Origin: Archaeoglobus sulfaticallidus PM70-1
Lineage (GTDB): Archaea; Halobacteriota; Archaeoglobi; Archaeoglobales; Archaeoglobaceae
Length of the DNA: 64,000 nt
Direction of reading: 5' to 3'
NCBI RefSeq assembly: GCF_000385565.1
Contig: NC_021169.1
Span: 1,966,571 to 2,030,570, forward strand
Shown: in pieces, positions 56,547 through 62,297 of the stretch
Numbering within the stretch: position 1 is the first letter of the stretch
Layout: the number at the start of each line of letters is the position of its first letter
Position numbers and translations under genes: made by a program
Notes under the pieces: model-generated
What the model was told of the DNA's origin: nothing
Seen by the model: the letters and a program-made list of their open reading frames with translations, nothing else
Databases searched by the model: none

Positions 56547-57203
56547 GTGCACATAATGGAAGGTTTTCTGCCACCATTCTGGGCTGCAGTGTGGTATGCC
56601 TTTTCACTTCCGATAGTTGGATACGGTACATACAGAGCCAAAAAGGAGATTGAGAAGAACCCAAAAAATAAATCCCTGCTTGCTGTAGCGGCTGGATTTA
56701 TTTTCGTGCTATCTGCTTTGAAAATACCGTCTGTAACTGGAAGCTGTTCTCACCCAACAGGAACGGGAATAGCCGTTGTGTTATTTGGTCCTGCAATAAC
56801 AGCCTTCCTTTCAATAATCGTGCTGCTGTATCAGGCATTACTGCTCGCTCATGGTGGTTTAACAACGCTCGGTGCAAACACAGCATCAATGGGAATAGTC
56901 GGGCCGTTTGTGGGGTGGTTGATATACAGAGCAATAAAGGGTAAGACGAGCATTAAGGTCTCTACATTCGTAGCCGCTGCTGTGGCAGACTGGGTAACCT
57001 ATGTTGTCACTTCAATCCAGCTTGCCCTTGCTTTTCCTGCTGGTGCCGGAGTGGCTGGAGTGATAGCCTCTGCCACAAAGTTCTTGGCCGTATTTTCTGT
57101 TACGCAGATTCCCCTCGCGATAATAGAGGGTATAGTTGCCGCCCTTCTGATGGGCTATCTTGTTCAGATAAGAGATGACCTGTCCGTGGAGGTTGCAGCA
57201 TGA
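56547..57203 (+). CDS. cbiM: cobalt ECF transporter substrate-binding component CbiM
   Basis: 218 residues starting with GTG read as Met: MHIMEGFLPPFWAAVWY is the metal-binding N-terminal loop (His2 is the key ligand and needs the exact start). About seven helices; ALKIPSVTGSCSHPTGTGIA is the other signature. Binds Co2+ or Ni2+ with CbiN and CbiQO. Confidence 0.95.
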   Translation: MHIMEGFLPPFWAAVWYAFSLPIVGYGTYRAKKEIEKNPKNKSLLAVAAGFIFVLSALKIPSVTGSCSHPTGTGIAVVLFGPAITAFLSIIVLLYQALLLAHGGLTTLGANTASMGIVGPFVGWLIYRAIKGKTSIKVSTFVAAAVADWVTYVVTSIQLALAFPAGAGVAGVIASATKFLAVFSVTQIPLAIIEGIVAALLMGYLVQIRDDLSVEVAA

Positions 57204-57469
57204 AGTTAAAGGTGATTGTACTTCTGACAGCGATCTTCTTTTTCGTTACCATAGCCGCTGCTGAAGAATGGGCTGGAGCGGATGAGAAGGCAGAAGAGGT
57301 TATTGGAGATATAGCACCCGATTATGAGCCCTGGTTCTCTCCAATCTTTGAACCTCCAAGCGGTGAGATAGAAAGCCTGCTTTTCAGTCTGCAGGCTGCA
57401 ATAGGATCACTGATAATCGGCTACATCATCGGATACTACAGAGGGACAAGATATGCGCGAAACGCTTGA
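57200..57469 (+). CDS. cbiN: cobalt transporter auxiliary protein CbiN
   Basis: 89 residues with two helices and an extracytoplasmic loop (EWAGADEKAEEVIGDIAPDY, EPWFSPIFEPPSGEIESLLF). CbiN loads cobalt into CbiM. Overlaps cbiM by four bases and cbiQ by 17. Confidence 0.93.
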   Translation: MKLKVIVLLTAIFFFVTIAAAEEWAGADEKAEEVIGDIAPDYEPWFSPIFEPPSGEIESLLFSLQAAIGSLIIGYIIGYYRGTRYARNA

Positions 57470-58178
57470 GCACATACAGCTAAGCTCCAGAAAAGTTTTG
57501 GATGGGAGTCTGAAGATACATTTCTGCCTTCTTTTACTTTTATTTGTTGTTACGAGTGGAAAAGTCAGCGTATATCTTGCAGCATTTGCCATATTTTCAT
57601 GCCTCTCGCTCTATGCTGCTGGATGGTATTACATAAGGATACTCAAAGTCCCGGTCTATTTCCTCATTTCCGGAATCATCATAATTCTGCTCTTCATTCC
57701 CGGAAAAACAGCATATCAGCTATACTTCCTGAAAATATCCGAAGAGGGAATAGATACTGCCATAAACACAACTCTGAGGGCTTTAGCCTCTCTCTCAATC
57801 ATGTCGTTCATGATTCTGACAACCACAATTCCAGAACTGTTCTCCACATTTAAAAGGCTGAGACTGCCGGGGTTTATTGTTGAAATGTGTCTTCTCGTCT
57901 ACCGAGTAATACAGATTCTGCTCGACGAGGCTGCAAAGCTCGATATGTCTGCCTCTTCACGGCTTGGATATGCTAGCAAGAAGGTCTTCGTAAACACGAC
58001 TGCCCTGCTGTCATACTCCCTGTTCCTGAGGTCGCTTAAGAGGTCTGAAAAGCTGGACAGAGCGATGGATGCGAGATGCTACAGTGGAGAGATGCCGGTT
58101 CTGGATAAGAGGAGCCGTGGGTATAAGCATGCCATTACGATCACAGTTATGCTTATCTCGATGTGGTGGTTCCTGTGA
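57453..58178 (+). CDS. cbiQ: cobalt ECF transporter transmembrane protein CbiQ
   Basis: 241 residues, about five helices; the C-terminal coupling helix has the family signature SYSLFLRSLKRSEKLDRAMDARCYSG in which AMDARCY is the Ala-x-Ala/Glu-Arg-Gly-type motif contacting CbiO. Overlaps cbiO. Confidence 0.93.
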   Translation: MRETLEHIQLSSRKVLDGSLKIHFCLLLLLFVVTSGKVSVYLAAFAIFSCLSLYAAGWYYIRILKVPVYFLISGIIIILLFIPGKTAYQLYFLKISEEGIDTAINTTLRALASLSIMSFMILTTTIPELFSTFKRLRLPGFIVEMCLLVYRVIQILLDEAAKLDMSASSRLGYASKKVFVNTTALLSYSLFLRSLKRSEKLDRAMDARCYSGEMPVLDKRSRGYKHAITITVMLISMWWFL

Positions 58179-59200
58179 TCGAAACAAGGGATCTGTGGTT
58201 TAGTTATGGTAGCAGAGAGGTTTTGAAGGGTGTGAACTTCAGGGCGAATAAGGGCGAGGTGACGATACTGCTTGGCAGGAATGGTGCTGGGAAGACAACT
58301 TTGCTCATGCACCTGAACGGTTTGCTGAAACCATCCAGAGGAGAGGTTTGGATTGATGGTGTAAGGGTTAAATACGACAGAAAGAGCCTGATAGAGGTTC
58401 GAAAAAAGGTTGGCTTCGTTTTCCAGAATCCCGATGATCAGATTATTGCCCCAACGGTGTGGCAGGATGTCGTTTTCGGGCCCAAGAATATCGGGATGGG
58501 TTACGAGTTTGCTGAGGAAGCTATAAAAAGTCTTGGGCTGAAAGGTTATGAAGAGAGGCTCTGCAACTCCCTGAGCGGTGGAGAAAAAAGGAGAGTTGCG
58601 ATAGCAGGAGTTCTTGCGATGAATCCTGACTACATAATTATGGATGAACCAACCGCAGGCCTTGATGGCTTCGGGCTGAAAAACATGATCGAGATAATCG
58701 AGAATTTGAGAGATAGCGGAAAAACATTCGTTATCTCCACTCATGATCTAGATTTCGCAAGAGAGGTTGGTGAGAGATTTGTTTACATGGACAATGGAGA
58801 GATAGTACACGAAAGCGACAGGGTCGATCTGAGATTCGCCAACAGATGCGGGCTGAGGATAGGTAACGCCAGAGGCAGGCTTATCGTCATACCACACAAT
58901 GCAGAGATCCCGGATGTGGATGCAGATTTCATCGCAGCGATGGGTACAAAGGCAAAGAAGAGGGCCTCTGTGGAAAAGCTGGAAGTCGACATCACAAATG
59001 CCGTTCTCGAGAGATCAATTTTAAGGGCCATTGAGGGGCATACAGTCATGCTGATATGTAGCACTGAGATGCTGAATGTTGTTGAGAGGGAAGCCGAAAA
59101 GTTTCCGGTGTTTCTGGAAATTCTGGATGGTTTTGACCATCTCGCTGCTGTCAACACCGATAGTATTTTCGACAGCACAATTAAAACAAAGAGGAGGTGA
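58175..59200 (+). CDS. cbiO: cobalt ECF transporter ATPase CbiO with C-terminal extension
   Basis: About 341 residues. Walker A LLGRNGAGKTTLLMHLNG, Q-loop VFQNPDDQI, signature LSGGEKRRVAIAG, Walker B DYIIMDEPTAGLDG and switch STHDLDF are intact. The usual ATPase ends near residue 235; about 100 extra residues follow (IVIPHNAEIPDVDADFIAAM ...), absent from minimal CbiO. The GTG 58175 overlaps the cbiQ stop (GTGA); a longer frame from 58163 exists. Confidence 0.93.
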   Translation: MIETRDLWFSYGSREVLKGVNFRANKGEVTILLGRNGAGKTTLLMHLNGLLKPSRGEVWIDGVRVKYDRKSLIEVRKKVGFVFQNPDDQIIAPTVWQDVVFGPKNIGMGYEFAEEAIKSLGLKGYEERLCNSLSGGEKRRVAIAGVLAMNPDYIIMDEPTAGLDGFGLKNMIEIIENLRDSGKTFVISTHDLDFAREVGERFVYMDNGEIVHESDRVDLRFANRCGLRIGNARGRLIVIPHNAEIPDVDADFIAAMGTKAKKRASVEKLEVDITNAVLERSILRAIEGHTVMLICSTEMLNVVEREAEKFPVFLEILDGFDHLAAVNTDSIFDSTIKTKRR

Positions 59201-59203
59201 AAA

Positions 59204-59553
59204 ATGGAGCTTTTGATGTTCGCATCAGTTAGCATTGCCATAATCCATTCCTTAGCTCCCGACCACTACTTTCCATTTGTCGCCTTAGGAAAGCTGAAAA
59301 ACTGGAGTGTGAAGAGAGTGCTTGCCTTCTCAGGAGTTGCTGGAGTATTCCATGTCTCATCCTCGATCGCTCTTGGACTCATTTTGATAAACGGGATCAA
59401 CCTAATTGGTGTAGCAGAATCCATTGAAGAACTCTCACCATTAATGCTTGTGTTCATTGGATTGCTGTATGCAATTATTTCAGTTATAAGGGGTCACAGC
59501 CACACCCACTCAACCTCAACGGCAATGATGTTACAAGAAAATAAGCAAGAAAG
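59204..59553 (+). pseudogene. NiCoT/NicO-type metal permease, 5' part, split by IS605
   Basis: The first ~115 codons of a membrane permease. IHSLAPDHYFPFVALGKLKN holds the H-x4-D-H signature of nickel/cobalt permeases, with three helices and a histidine-rich loop (RGHSHTHSTS). The frame then runs into insertion-sequence sequence and stops at 59576-59578. The remainder is found at 60946-61215. Four bases after cbiO and just before cbiT, so originally part of the cobalt operon. Confidence 0.8.
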
Positions 59554-59589
59554 CTCACACCCTTTAGGGTTGAGATGAATTGCGTAAGA

Positions 59590-59691
59590 ATGCCTACCAA
59601 TAACTTTATACAGCCGAAGTTTATATCATCCGTTGGAACTGTAACGCTTGAAGTTGTTAAGAGATATATCGAAGAGCAGAAAGGAAAATGA
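59590..59691 (+). pseudogene. TnpA (Y1 transposase) C-terminal remnant
   Basis: 33 codons reading MPTNNFIQPKFISSVGTVTL and EVVKRYIEEQKGK then stop. This is the characteristic end of IS200/IS605 TnpA; the catalytic HUH and Tyr regions are gone. Its stop overlaps the tnpB start (ATGA), the usual IS605 arrangement. Confidence 0.8.
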
Positions 59692-60941
59692 GAAGGACTA
59701 ACGTCTTTAAGTTAAAACCTACGAAGGAACAAGAAAAGAGGTTGTTCGAGCTAGCTAATAACTGCTCTCGATTGTGGAATGAAATTAACTACAAACGTCG
59801 TCAATCATTCTTCTCAGGTGAAATAGACTGGAACACTGATGAAGAATATCATAAATATAAGAAAATCATAGGTTCTGCAATGGTTCAACAAATTATAAGA
59901 AAGAATAACGAAGCATGGAAATCTTTCTTTGCTTTGTTGAAGAAGAAATCTAAAGGCAAGCTCCCTCCTAATATTCGTAAGGTTTCTCCACCTAGATACT
60001 GGAAAGATCGAAAAGCTGGTAAGAGAAAGTTGAGGATTCTCGTTAGAAATGATTGTTATAAGTTAGGAGGTGATGTATTAAAGTTCGGGAAAATGAGAAT
60101 TAAATGGAAAGGAAAGAATAGATGGAAAGGGAAACAAGGAAGGTTAGAGATCGTCTATGATGAACCGAGCAAGTCATGGTACGCCTTCCAGCCTGTAGAG
60201 GTTGAACCTCTACATCAACCAATTGGATATAAGAAGGCGTACTGTGACTTGGGTGTGAGAGTGCTGATAATGGCAGCAATCGATAACGAAGTGTTTGGAT
60301 ACAGTTCTAATCGACTGCTTTCAGATTGGTGGTATTGGAGTAAGAAGATAGCAAAATATCAAAGCAAGCTAAAACGAGTTAACAACAAACACACATCAAA
60401 GAGGTTAAGACAGCTGTACAGAAAGCGTAAGAGAAGGTTCAGACACTTTGTCAACACTATTGTCAATAGATTTATAAGATTATGTTATGAGAGAGGAGTC
60501 TCAGAAATTGTCATAGGTGATTTGAAAGGGATTCGAAACAACAATAATGGAATTAAAAAATTCAACTCAATGATTCACAACTTCTGGAGTCATGACTATC
60601 TGATTCAGAGAATTAAAGAAAAAGCAGAAGAATACGGGATGAAAGTGACACAGGTGGATGAAAGCTATACTTCATCCAGATGCCCAAGATGTGGTTCTGT
60701 AAAGGTATATAAACACAAAAGACTGTTTAAATGTCTTAACTGTGGATTGGAAGCACATAGAGATGCTGTTGGCTGTGTGAATATAGGGGTTGCTCAGGGT
60801 AATAACCCTGGGGAACTCATTAACGGGGCAGTGGCATGCCCTGTGTTTCTGAGAGTAGAGGAAGGGGCTGAGGTAAAAGCCGATGTAGCCCCGATGTCCG
60901 TGAAGCTCTCAGAAGCACGAACCTCACACGCTTTAGCGTGA
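59688..60941 (+). CDS. tnpB: TnpB RNA-guided nuclease (IS605 OrfB)
   Basis: 417 residues. N-terminal RNA/DNA-binding domain (RRTNVFKLKPTKEQEKRLFE, RLWNEINYKRRQ), RuvC-I Asp187 in AYCDLGVRV, RuvC-II IVIGDLKGIRNN, zinc finger Cys332/335/349/352 and RuvC-III Asp359 in AHRDAVGCVNIG. The canonical RuvC-II Glu position reads Gly277 (GDL in place of EDL), as in a group of TnpB proteins thought to have a rearranged active site. A guide (omega/re) RNA is expected from the 3' end through the right hairpin. Basic and apparently intact. Confidence 0.92.
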   Translation: MRRTNVFKLKPTKEQEKRLFELANNCSRLWNEINYKRRQSFFSGEIDWNTDEEYHKYKKIIGSAMVQQIIRKNNEAWKSFFALLKKKSKGKLPPNIRKVSPPRYWKDRKAGKRKLRILVRNDCYKLGGDVLKFGKMRIKWKGKNRWKGKQGRLEIVYDEPSKSWYAFQPVEVEPLHQPIGYKKAYCDLGVRVLIMAAIDNEVFGYSSNRLLSDWWYWSKKIAKYQSKLKRVNNKHTSKRLRQLYRKRKRRFRHFVNTIVNRFIRLCYERGVSEIVIGDLKGIRNNNNGIKKFNSMIHNFWSHDYLIQRIKEKAEEYGMKVTQVDESYTSSRCPRCGSVKVYKHKRLFKCLNCGLEAHRDAVGCVNIGVAQGNNPGELINGAVACPVFLRVEEGAEVKADVAPMSVKLSEARTSHALA

Positions 60942-60945
60942 GAGG

Positions 60946-61215
60946 ATGTCAGTTGTAATAAGCCTCTCACCAGGCATACCACTTATTCCATTAATGCTCG
61001 CCGCAAATAGTTCAATCGAGCTGATGTCAATAACAATCAGCTTCGCTTCAGCAACCATAGTAACAGTAGTGATCCTGACATATATTTCATATAAAGCGTT
61101 CAGGCCGCCAGAGATCTTTCATGGACGGGAAGATGTCATTGCCGGATTGATCATCGCAGCCGTTGGAGCGATAACCCACATAATAGAGATCAAGCCCAAA
61201 AGGGTGACGCAATGA
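60946..61215 (+). pseudogene. NiCoT/NicO-type metal permease, 3' part
   Basis: The remaining ~88 codons of the split permease: VVISLSPGIPLIPLMLAANS, two to three helices (ITISFASATIVTVVILTYIS, DVIAGLIIAAVGAITHIIE) and a natural stop overlapping the cbiT ATG. An ATG in the joining region could allow a separate fragment to be translated, but it lacks the metal-binding signature, so it is most likely non-functional. Confidence 0.75.
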
Positions 61216-61700
61216 AGGAGACAAAGCCTGAGATTATAGGAGTTCTCTTCGCAAAGCTGAAGCCAAACAAAAAAGATGTTTTCGCGGATATCGGGTGCGG
61301 GAGTGGAGCAGTATCGGAGTTTTTTTCGAGATATGTTAGCAAGGTGTATGCTGTCGAAAGGGATGAATCGATGCTCCAAATCGCAAAGGAGAGGCTTAAA
61401 GGTAACAACATTGAACTCATACTGTCTGACGGCTATGACTTTCTCAAAGAGCATGATTGCGATATCGCTTTCTTTGGCGGGACAAAAGGCATAGAGAGAA
61501 TGCTTGAGGTCTGCGATGCTGAAAGGATTGCTGTCAATGCTGCTCGCATCGAGGTTGCAGTTGAAGTTACAAAGAAGATGAAATCCATGGGTATTTTCGA
61601 TGAGGTTTTAATTCTGAACATCTCGAGAAGCTACGAGCTTGCTGGAGGGACTGCTTTCAGAACCCTCAATCCAGTGTTCATGATACTCGGAAAAAGATGA
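61212..61700 (+). CDS. cbiT: cobalt-precorrin-6B C15-methyltransferase (decarboxylating) CbiT
   Basis: 162 residues, class I SAM methyltransferase: KKDVFADIGCGSGAVSEFFS (motif I), VYAVERDESMLQIAKER, and AFFGGTKGIERMLE typical of CbiT. Methylates C15 and decarboxylates the C12 acetate in anaerobic cobalamin synthesis. ATGA overlap with the interrupted permease indicates the old operon. Confidence 0.9.
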   Translation: MKETKPEIIGVLFAKLKPNKKDVFADIGCGSGAVSEFFSRYVSKVYAVERDESMLQIAKERLKGNNIELILSDGYDFLKEHDCDIAFFGGTKGIERMLEVCDAERIAVNAARIEVAVEVTKKMKSMGIFDEVLILNISRSYELAGGTAFRTLNPVFMILGKR

Positions 61701-61709
61701 GGTGATCAT

Positions 61710-62297
61710 TTGCTGTATGGAGTTGGACTCGGACCGGGTGATAAAAAGCTTCTGACCTTAAGGGCTGTAGAGATAATTAAAGAGGTAGATGAAGTTATCG
61801 TCCCAGGAAAGATGGCTTATGAGCTGATAAAGGATATCAGAGAGCCAAGAATAGTTGAGTTTCCGATGGGTAAGAGTGAAGAGGTCGCGAGAAGCCTTGC
61901 CAGGGAGATCTCTGAGAGAGATGATGACACAGCCTTCTGCTGTATTGGTGATCCAATCTTTTATTCTACCTTCCACCACATAGTCGAGGAATTGCTTGCT
62001 ATAAATCCAGAAGCAGAAGTTGAGGTCATACCGGGGGTTTCGAGCATCAATTCAGCCCTTGCGAAAACCAGAACATTCATCAACAATTCGATGCTGCTGA
62101 CAACCCAGGATTTCTTCGATGTGGATGTCGCTGTTGTTCTGAAGGCAAAAAGATCGAAAGAGGTTGTAGAGAAGCTGAAAGAGAGAGGCTTTAACGAGTT
62201 TATACTGATCGAAAGGATGTTCATGGATGGTGAGAAAGTATATGAAAGCATCCCGAACAGGGCAGATTACTTCAGTGTTCTGATAGCGAAGAAGTGA
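61710..62297 (+). CDS. cbiL: cobalt-precorrin-2 C20-methyltransferase CbiL
   Basis: 195 residues of the tetrapyrrole methylase family: LYGVGLGPGDKKLLTLRAVE, FCCIGDPIFYSTFHHIV and VEVIPGVSSINSALAK. Starts with TTG at 61710 after GAGGTGATCA. Slightly shorter than common CbiL (~220). Adds the C20 methyl in cobalamin synthesis. Confidence 0.9.
   Translation: MLYGVGLGPGDKKLLTLRAVEIIKEVDEVIVPGKMAYELIKDIREPRIVEFPMGKSEEVARSLAREISERDDDTAFCCIGDPIFYSTFHHIVEELLAINPEAEVEVIPGVSSINSALAKTRTFINNSMLLTTQDFFDVDVAVVLKAKRSKEVVEKLKERGFNEFILIERMFMDGEKVYESIPNRADYFSVLIAKK

What the first reader, a model, noticed from the sequence alone, without database searches (positions are those of the whole stretch)
59204..61215. 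Cobalt-operon permease split by an IS605 element
The 5' part with the H-x4-D-H motif ends inside the element's left hairpin and the 3' helices resume after the right hairpin, still overlapping cbiT by ATGA. The insertion therefore disrupted a NiCoT-type permease sitting between cbiO and cbiT, and may alter expression of cbiT and cbiL.
Basis: seen in the sequence. Interest (0 to 1): 0.6.

Follow-up and report, generated by a model that had tools for sequence, protein, structure and literature searches.

The report
Transposon-split accessory permease in cobalt operon
A small mobile DNA element of a well-known kind has landed inside a gene for an optional membrane protein, probably a nickel or cobalt transporter, next to the cobalt-uptake genes of a heat-loving archaeon; related species carry the gene whole, and many others do without it.

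Summary
The window lies in a 2,076,931-bp genome, the published size of Archaeoglobus sulfaticallidus PM70-1. In 8 related genomes the two halves are one uninterrupted gene beside cbiMNQO. The halves join without a gap at 59534|60953. The insert is 59535-60952 (1418 bp): an IS200/IS605 element with IS608-type ends, namely TTAC on its left, guide AAAG, two hairpins, right guide GAAC and right cleavage site TCAG. Position 4 of the right guide pairs with position 4 of the cleavage site in 19 of 21 related right ends, which fixes the boundary. The element carries an open tnpB of the alternative-glutamate type. Its tnpA is reduced to the last ~20 residues, so it cannot move unaided. The permease is closer to RcnA/NicO proteins than to NiCoT, so 'NiCoT-type' is only partly right. 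It is an accessory gene: of 29 cbiT loci in the family, cbiO-permease-cbiT is seen in 4, cbiO directly before cbiT in 17, no cbiO in reach in 8. An effect on cbiT/cbiL is untested. An ordinary insertional gene disruption, well resolved.

The parts
56547..57203 (+). cbiM, ECF cobalt transporter S component
   Evidence: NCBIfam TIGR00123, E 1.4e-92
57200..57469 (+). cbiN
   Evidence: NCBIfam TIGR01165, E 8.2e-35
57453..58178 (+). cbiQ
   Evidence: NCBIfam TIGR02454 E 4.8e-40; Pfam PF02361
58163..59200 (+). cbiO
   Evidence: NCBIfam TIGR01166 E 1.6e-75
59204..59534 (+). 5' part of the disrupted permease (codons 1-110 and first base of 111), with HSLAPDH; TTAC target at 59531-59534
   Evidence: Intact in 8 relatives; 24 of 24 invariant columns kept
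59535..60952 (+). IS200/IS605-family insertion, IS608-type ends, tnpA deleted, 1418 bp
   Evidence: Boundaries from the in-frame gapless join, TTAC/AAAG left end, guide/cleavage-site covariation
59550..59574 (+). left guide AAAG (59550-59553) and left subterminal hairpin (59554-59574)
   Evidence: Sequence; same order in related elements
59620..59691 (+). tnpA remnant, C-terminal end only
   Evidence: Y1_Tnp profile positions 102-121 of 121, E 0.0089, below Pfam cut-off; 71% identical over 28 aa to the TnpA of element L069; deletion mapped against L069
59688..60941 (+). tnpB, 417 aa, D-Phi-G with alternative RuvC-II glutamate (Ealt)
   Evidence: NCBIfam NF040570 guided_TnpB E 9.1e-54; motifs
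60919..60952 (+). right end: guide GAAC (60919-60922), hairpin (60923-60942), cleavage site TCAG (60949-60952); also holds ATG at 60946
60953..61215 (+). 3' part of the disrupted permease; open frame from the element's ATG at 60946
   Evidence: Relatives; 13 of 15 invariant columns kept, G114S and C118G changed
61212..61700 (+). cbiT, overlaps the 3' part by ATGA
   Evidence: NCBIfam NF001556 E 4e-17, TIGR02469 E 2.7e-13, both below cut-off; syntenic
61710..62297 (+). cbiL
   Evidence: NCBIfam NF004060 E 4.7e-57, over cut-off

Best explanation
An IS200/IS605-family element of the IS608 kind inserted just 3' of a TTAC in codons 110-111 of an accessory membrane-protein gene lying between cbiO and cbiT. 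Shown: the gene is whole in relatives; the two flanks join in frame with no base gained or lost; the ends carry IS608-type signals; tnpA is deleted to a C-terminal remnant; tnpB is open. Inferred: the 197-residue permease (distant RcnA/NicO-like, probably nickel/cobalt) is no longer made as one chain and is probably inactive. The insertion is tolerated because the organism keeps CbiMNQO and because the gene is optional in the family. The element is now immobile unless a TnpA acts in trans. Its TnpB may keep it at this site by cutting any chromosome that has lost it, since the RNA guide read from the right flank is the permease's own 3' part, which lies next to TTAC in the empty site.
For: Single-ORF homologues in 8 genomes with a gapless junction. 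Conserved neighbourhood: cbiMNQO beside the permease in 8 of 8. Related elements with TTAC, 14-16 nt, AAAG at the left. Right guide position 4 pairs with cleavage-site position 4 in 19 of 21 right ends (20 of 22 rows before L077, a false match inside tnpB, was dropped; shuffles reach the unfiltered count 0 of 20000 times, mean 9.7). IS608 rules: insertion 3' to TTAC, CL TTAC, CR TCAA, GL AAAG, GR GAAT (PMC5934647, passages). tnpA remnant and mapped internal deletion. No other permease copy in the genome. The target-plus-guide pattern has no other match with up to 3 mismatches in the genome.
Against: The relatives are only 44-66% identical in the 5' half, so the empty site is inferred at protein level; no isogenic empty strain was available. 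Both fragments are still open frames. The guide/cleavage-site covariation partly reflects subfamily descent. Two of 21 right ends do not pair (L076, L086).
Confidence: 0.95

Rival explanations
1. The two halves are still made and assemble as a two-chain split permease; the 3' chain starts at the ATG that the element's right end supplies, 4 bases after the tnpB stop, and its end stays coupled to cbiT.
For: Both fragments are open frames; 24 of 24 and 13 of 15 invariant columns kept; tnpB stop 60939-60941, ATG 60946, ATGA overlap with cbiT.
Against: The two lost invariant columns (G114S, C118G, the latter in the SPC motif invariant in 8 of 8 relatives) lie close to the junction. AGG directly abuts the ATG, poor spacing for a ribosome site. 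The right-end ATG is common in related elements and mostly opens onto short frames, so here it is probably chance (1 in 3 for frame).
Confidence: 0.06
2. The halves are two separate ancestral genes with a transposon between them.
For: Each half has its own start and stop here.
Against: One ORF in 8 of 8 relatives that hold both halves.
Confidence: 0.01
3. Assembly artefact joining a repeat element into the gene.
For: Transposon copies are a common cause of misjoins (general knowledge).
Against: Nearest other tnpB copy 58% identical; left-end DNA single copy; base-exact ends; genome finished with 8-kb pairs and Sanger gap closing at 50x (PMC3703591, whole text).
Confidence: 0.01

Closest known systems
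IS608 / IS200-IS605 family elements
   Same: TTAC target kept on the left flank, left guide AAAG, subterminal hairpins, GAA[N]/TCA[N] right guide and cleavage site, tnpB downstream, no target duplication
   Different: tnpA deleted to a C-terminal remnant; right pair is GAAC/TCAG in place of GAAT/TCAA
Element L069 in Candidatus Alkanophagales B39_G2 (QMVQ01000024.1)
   Same: TnpB 76% identical, same GAAC/TCAG right end, similar left end
   Different: Keeps most of tnpA, itself apparently frameshifted; lies in another lineage
RcnA/NicO-type nickel/cobalt transporters
   Same: Profile match over 182 columns, histidine-bearing first motif, GL(S/I)PC motif
   Different: Here HSLAPDH in place of HALEPGH; no Pfam NicO match
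NiCoT (HoxN/NixA)
   Same: H-x4-D-H motif (its link to NiCoT is recalled, from no call)
   Different: No PF03824 match at the permease; profile comparison not significant

Membership tests
IS200/IS605 family (IS608 group), complete element | TTAC target immediately left of the element | tested here: met
   59531-59534; rule
IS200/IS605 family (IS608 group), complete element | Subterminal hairpins with 5' guide tetranucleotides matching cleavage sites | tested here: met
   AAAG + hairpin left, GAAC + hairpin + TCAG right
IS200/IS605 family (IS608 group), complete element | No target-site duplication | tested here: met
   Gapless in-frame join, no repeated bases
IS200/IS605 family (IS608 group), complete element | Intact HUH Y1 transposase tnpA | tested here: not met
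   Only the C-terminal ~20 residues remain; hence filed as a tnpA-deleted derivative
TnpB RNA-guided nuclease | guided_TnpB profile over cut-off and RuvC D-E-D residues | tested here: met
   NF040570 183 bits, cut-off 100; DLG, Ealt six residues before the first CxxC (definition), third D in HRD by alignment with 8j12
TnpB RNA-guided nuclease | RNA-guided cutting of TAM + guide target | not testable with these tools
   Needs an assay
NiCoT permeases | PF03824 match | tested here: not met
   no match in the own genome, none at the permease locus of six family genomes with the intact gene
NiCoT permeases | H-x4-D-H motif | tested here: met
   HSLAPDH in the window; D20 and H21 invariant in 8 of 8 relatives, H15 in 7 with one ambiguous residue
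RcnA/NicO-like transporters | Profile similarity over most of the length | tested here: inconclusive
   hhalign 88.6%, E 2.7e-6 for one comparison, small alignments; no Pfam NicO match in any of the 8 members at E up to 1

The most novel reading that the evidence does not exclude
The element turned one permease into a two-chain transporter: the transposon supplies the start codon of the second chain, translation runs tnpB - second half - cbiT by stop/start coupling, and TnpB holds the arrangement in place by cutting restored alleles.
Probability: 0.04. Interest if true: 0.55.

Novelty: new member of a known kind. Interest (0 to 1): 0.2.

Why it matters
It resolves one gene call in a cultured archaeon: the two fragments should be annotated as a disrupted gene, and the strain has probably lost an accessory transporter while keeping CbiMNQO. 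It also gives a clean, base-exact target/guide pair for testing a thermophilic archaeal TnpB of the alternative-glutamate type, and a natural GAAC/TCAG compensatory variant of the IS608 right end.

Tried and rejected
Pfam and NCBIfam on the halves gave nothing. On intact relatives the best Pfam signal is DsbD_2, weak (E 0.00093, below cut-off, for one of two proteins; 5 of 8 relatives at E up to 1, best 0.00029); profile comparison with bona fide DsbD_2 proteins gave no support, so that label was dropped. The profile search of solved structures found no relevant match. Rfam found nothing relevant in 59000-61500, so there is no library support for the guide RNA. I first weighed right ends at 60950 and 60951: with TTAC kept on the left, 60951 breaks the reading frame, and both leave the fourth guide base without its partner. 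A first automatic right-end table (24 of 28 paired, of 40 elements) held false rows (L058, L090 and L095 not right ends, L085 misread), so I used the stricter one, which in turn missed L003, L059, L070, L075 and L089; these pair.

Full report
What is there. The window is G000:C1:1966571-2030570 of a 2,076,931-base single contig. That is the published size of Archaeoglobus sulfaticallidus PM70-1T (PMC3703591, whole text); the naming rests on this equality. The genes run cbiM, cbiN, cbiQ, cbiO, 5' fragment, tnpB, 3' fragment, cbiT, cbiL, all on the + strand.

Is it one gene split in two? The search of 40 relatives (own genome counted) gives matches in 10 for the 5' half and in 10 for the 3' half. 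Eight genomes besides the own one have both halves, each as one ORF. In L017 and L018 BLAST places residue 110 and the third residue of the 3' ORF on adjacent bases. The alignment of the joined halves with the eight intact proteins has no gap at the junction. In all eight the gene lies in the same cluster as cbiM, N, Q and O; in four (L099-L102) it sits exactly between cbiO and cbiT, in two (L105, L106) cbiT lies between cbiO and the permease, and in two (L103, L104) no cbiT is in the stretch read. The other matches are a 28-residue fragment in G015, a second weak match in G025, and a C-terminal piece only in G008, so the gene seems to have decayed in other lineages too.

Where exactly is the element? 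TTAC ends at 59534. If the element is 59535-60952 the empty site reads TTA CTT GTA ATA AGC, in frame, giving a 197-residue protein like the relatives. IS608 inserts 3' of TTAC, with left guide AAAG, right guide GAAT and right cleavage site TCAA (PMC5934647, passages). The window has TTAC, AAAG before a left hairpin, and GAAC before a right hairpin followed by TCAG. Related elements show the same layout. Over the 40 elements compared (the window's included) a strict right-end search found 22; I dropped L077, which lies inside tnpB. Of the 21 left, position 4 of the guide and position 4 of the cleavage site form a Watson-Crick pair in 19 (T-A, C-G or A-T); L076 and L086 do not. In 20,000 shuffles of the unfiltered 22 none reached the observed 20 (mean 9.7). 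Shuffles ignore relatedness, so this is not a probability. It does indicate that the fourth base belongs to the element, which fixes the right boundary.

What is the element? TnpB is a full RNA-guided nuclease family member by profile (NF040570, 183 bits, cut-off 100). The canonical RuvC-II glutamate of the solved nuclease 8j12 aligns with glycine here, but a glutamate lies six residues before the first CxxC, as in the D-Phi-G/Ealt clade described in PMC10711439 (passages). All 21 proteins of 40 in which that place could be read have it. Between the left hairpin and tnpB only the C-terminal end of tnpA is left: Y1_Tnp profile positions 102-121, E 0.0089, below Pfam's cut-off, 71% identical over 28 residues to the TnpA of L069. 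L069 keeps about 350 more bases between left end and tnpB. The HUH part is gone, so the element cannot move by itself. The genome has three open Y1 transposases and one broken one; the ends I looked at (L037-L039) are unlike this element's, so no obvious helper was found.

What does the disrupted protein do? Direct Pfam matches are below cut-off. The profile of the eight intact proteins aligns over 182 columns with archaeal RcnA/NicO-type proteins (88.6%, E 2.7e-6) but not with NiCoT-type (0.8%, E 0.072) or DsbD_2 proteins (0.2%, E 0.3); the names RcnA and NiCoT for these two sets are mine, from their motifs, both sets having been found with PF03824. These are single comparisons of small, hydrophobic alignments, so I take 'distant RcnA/NicO-like, probably nickel or cobalt' as likely, not shown; import or export is open. 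PMC2667541 (passages found) describes NiCoT, UreH, HupE/UreJ and Cbt families; the passages seen do not name this archaeal family.

Does it matter to the cell? In 29 family loci around cbiT (30 of 39 matches were fetched, one being the window itself), the permease lies between cbiO and cbiT in 4, cbiO is directly before cbiT in 17, and no cbiO is within reach in 8. CbiMNQO is complete in the window. The gene is thus an accessory, and its loss is likely tolerated. There is no run of five or more T in the element, which argues weakly against a terminator; expression of cbiT and cbiL remains untested.

How it probably works now. The tnpB frame ends 4 bases before an ATG in the element's right end, which opens the 3' fragment, whose end overlaps cbiT. 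Translation might pass along this chain, but this is inference; the ATG is common in related right ends and mostly opens onto short frames. The TnpB guide would be the 3' part of the permease; in the genome the target-plus-guide pattern matches only the element's own junction, with TCAG in place of TTAC, as the model of TnpB as a keeper of its insertion site predicts (PMC11870625, passages). Cutting itself is not shown.

Verdict. A real, precisely defined, ordinary insertional disruption by a tnpA-deleted IS200/IS605 element.

Noticed in passing
L069:2493-4217: An Alkanophagales element with a TnpB 76% identical to the window's and the same GAAC/TCAG right end; its tnpA looks frameshifted by a small deletion relative to the window remnant. 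Suggests transfer between archaeal lineages.
   Followed up: partly
Right ends of 21 related elements: Two main right-end types, GAAT/TCAA and GAAC/TCAG, plus GAAA/TCAT in L068: natural compensatory changes between guide and cleavage site.
   Followed up: partly
60946-60948 and related right ends: The conserved right-end sequence ATGTCA supplies a start codon next to the flank; in L082 it opens a 300-residue frame and in L041 a 167-residue frame.
   Followed up: partly
L036 (G008) and L025 (G015): Fragments of the same permease in two other genomes of the family, the one in L036 lying between cbiM (other strand) and cbiL: probably independent decay.
   Followed up: partly
L039, beyond the end of tnpB on the reverse strand: A stretch just beyond the end of another IS605-type element looks like a tRNA gene; no tRNA search was run.
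   Followed up: no
L002 and L003: Two more elements of the same broad group in the own genome: L002 with a TTAC/AAAG left end and only 244 bases before tnpB, L003 a 3' remnant.
   Followed up: partly
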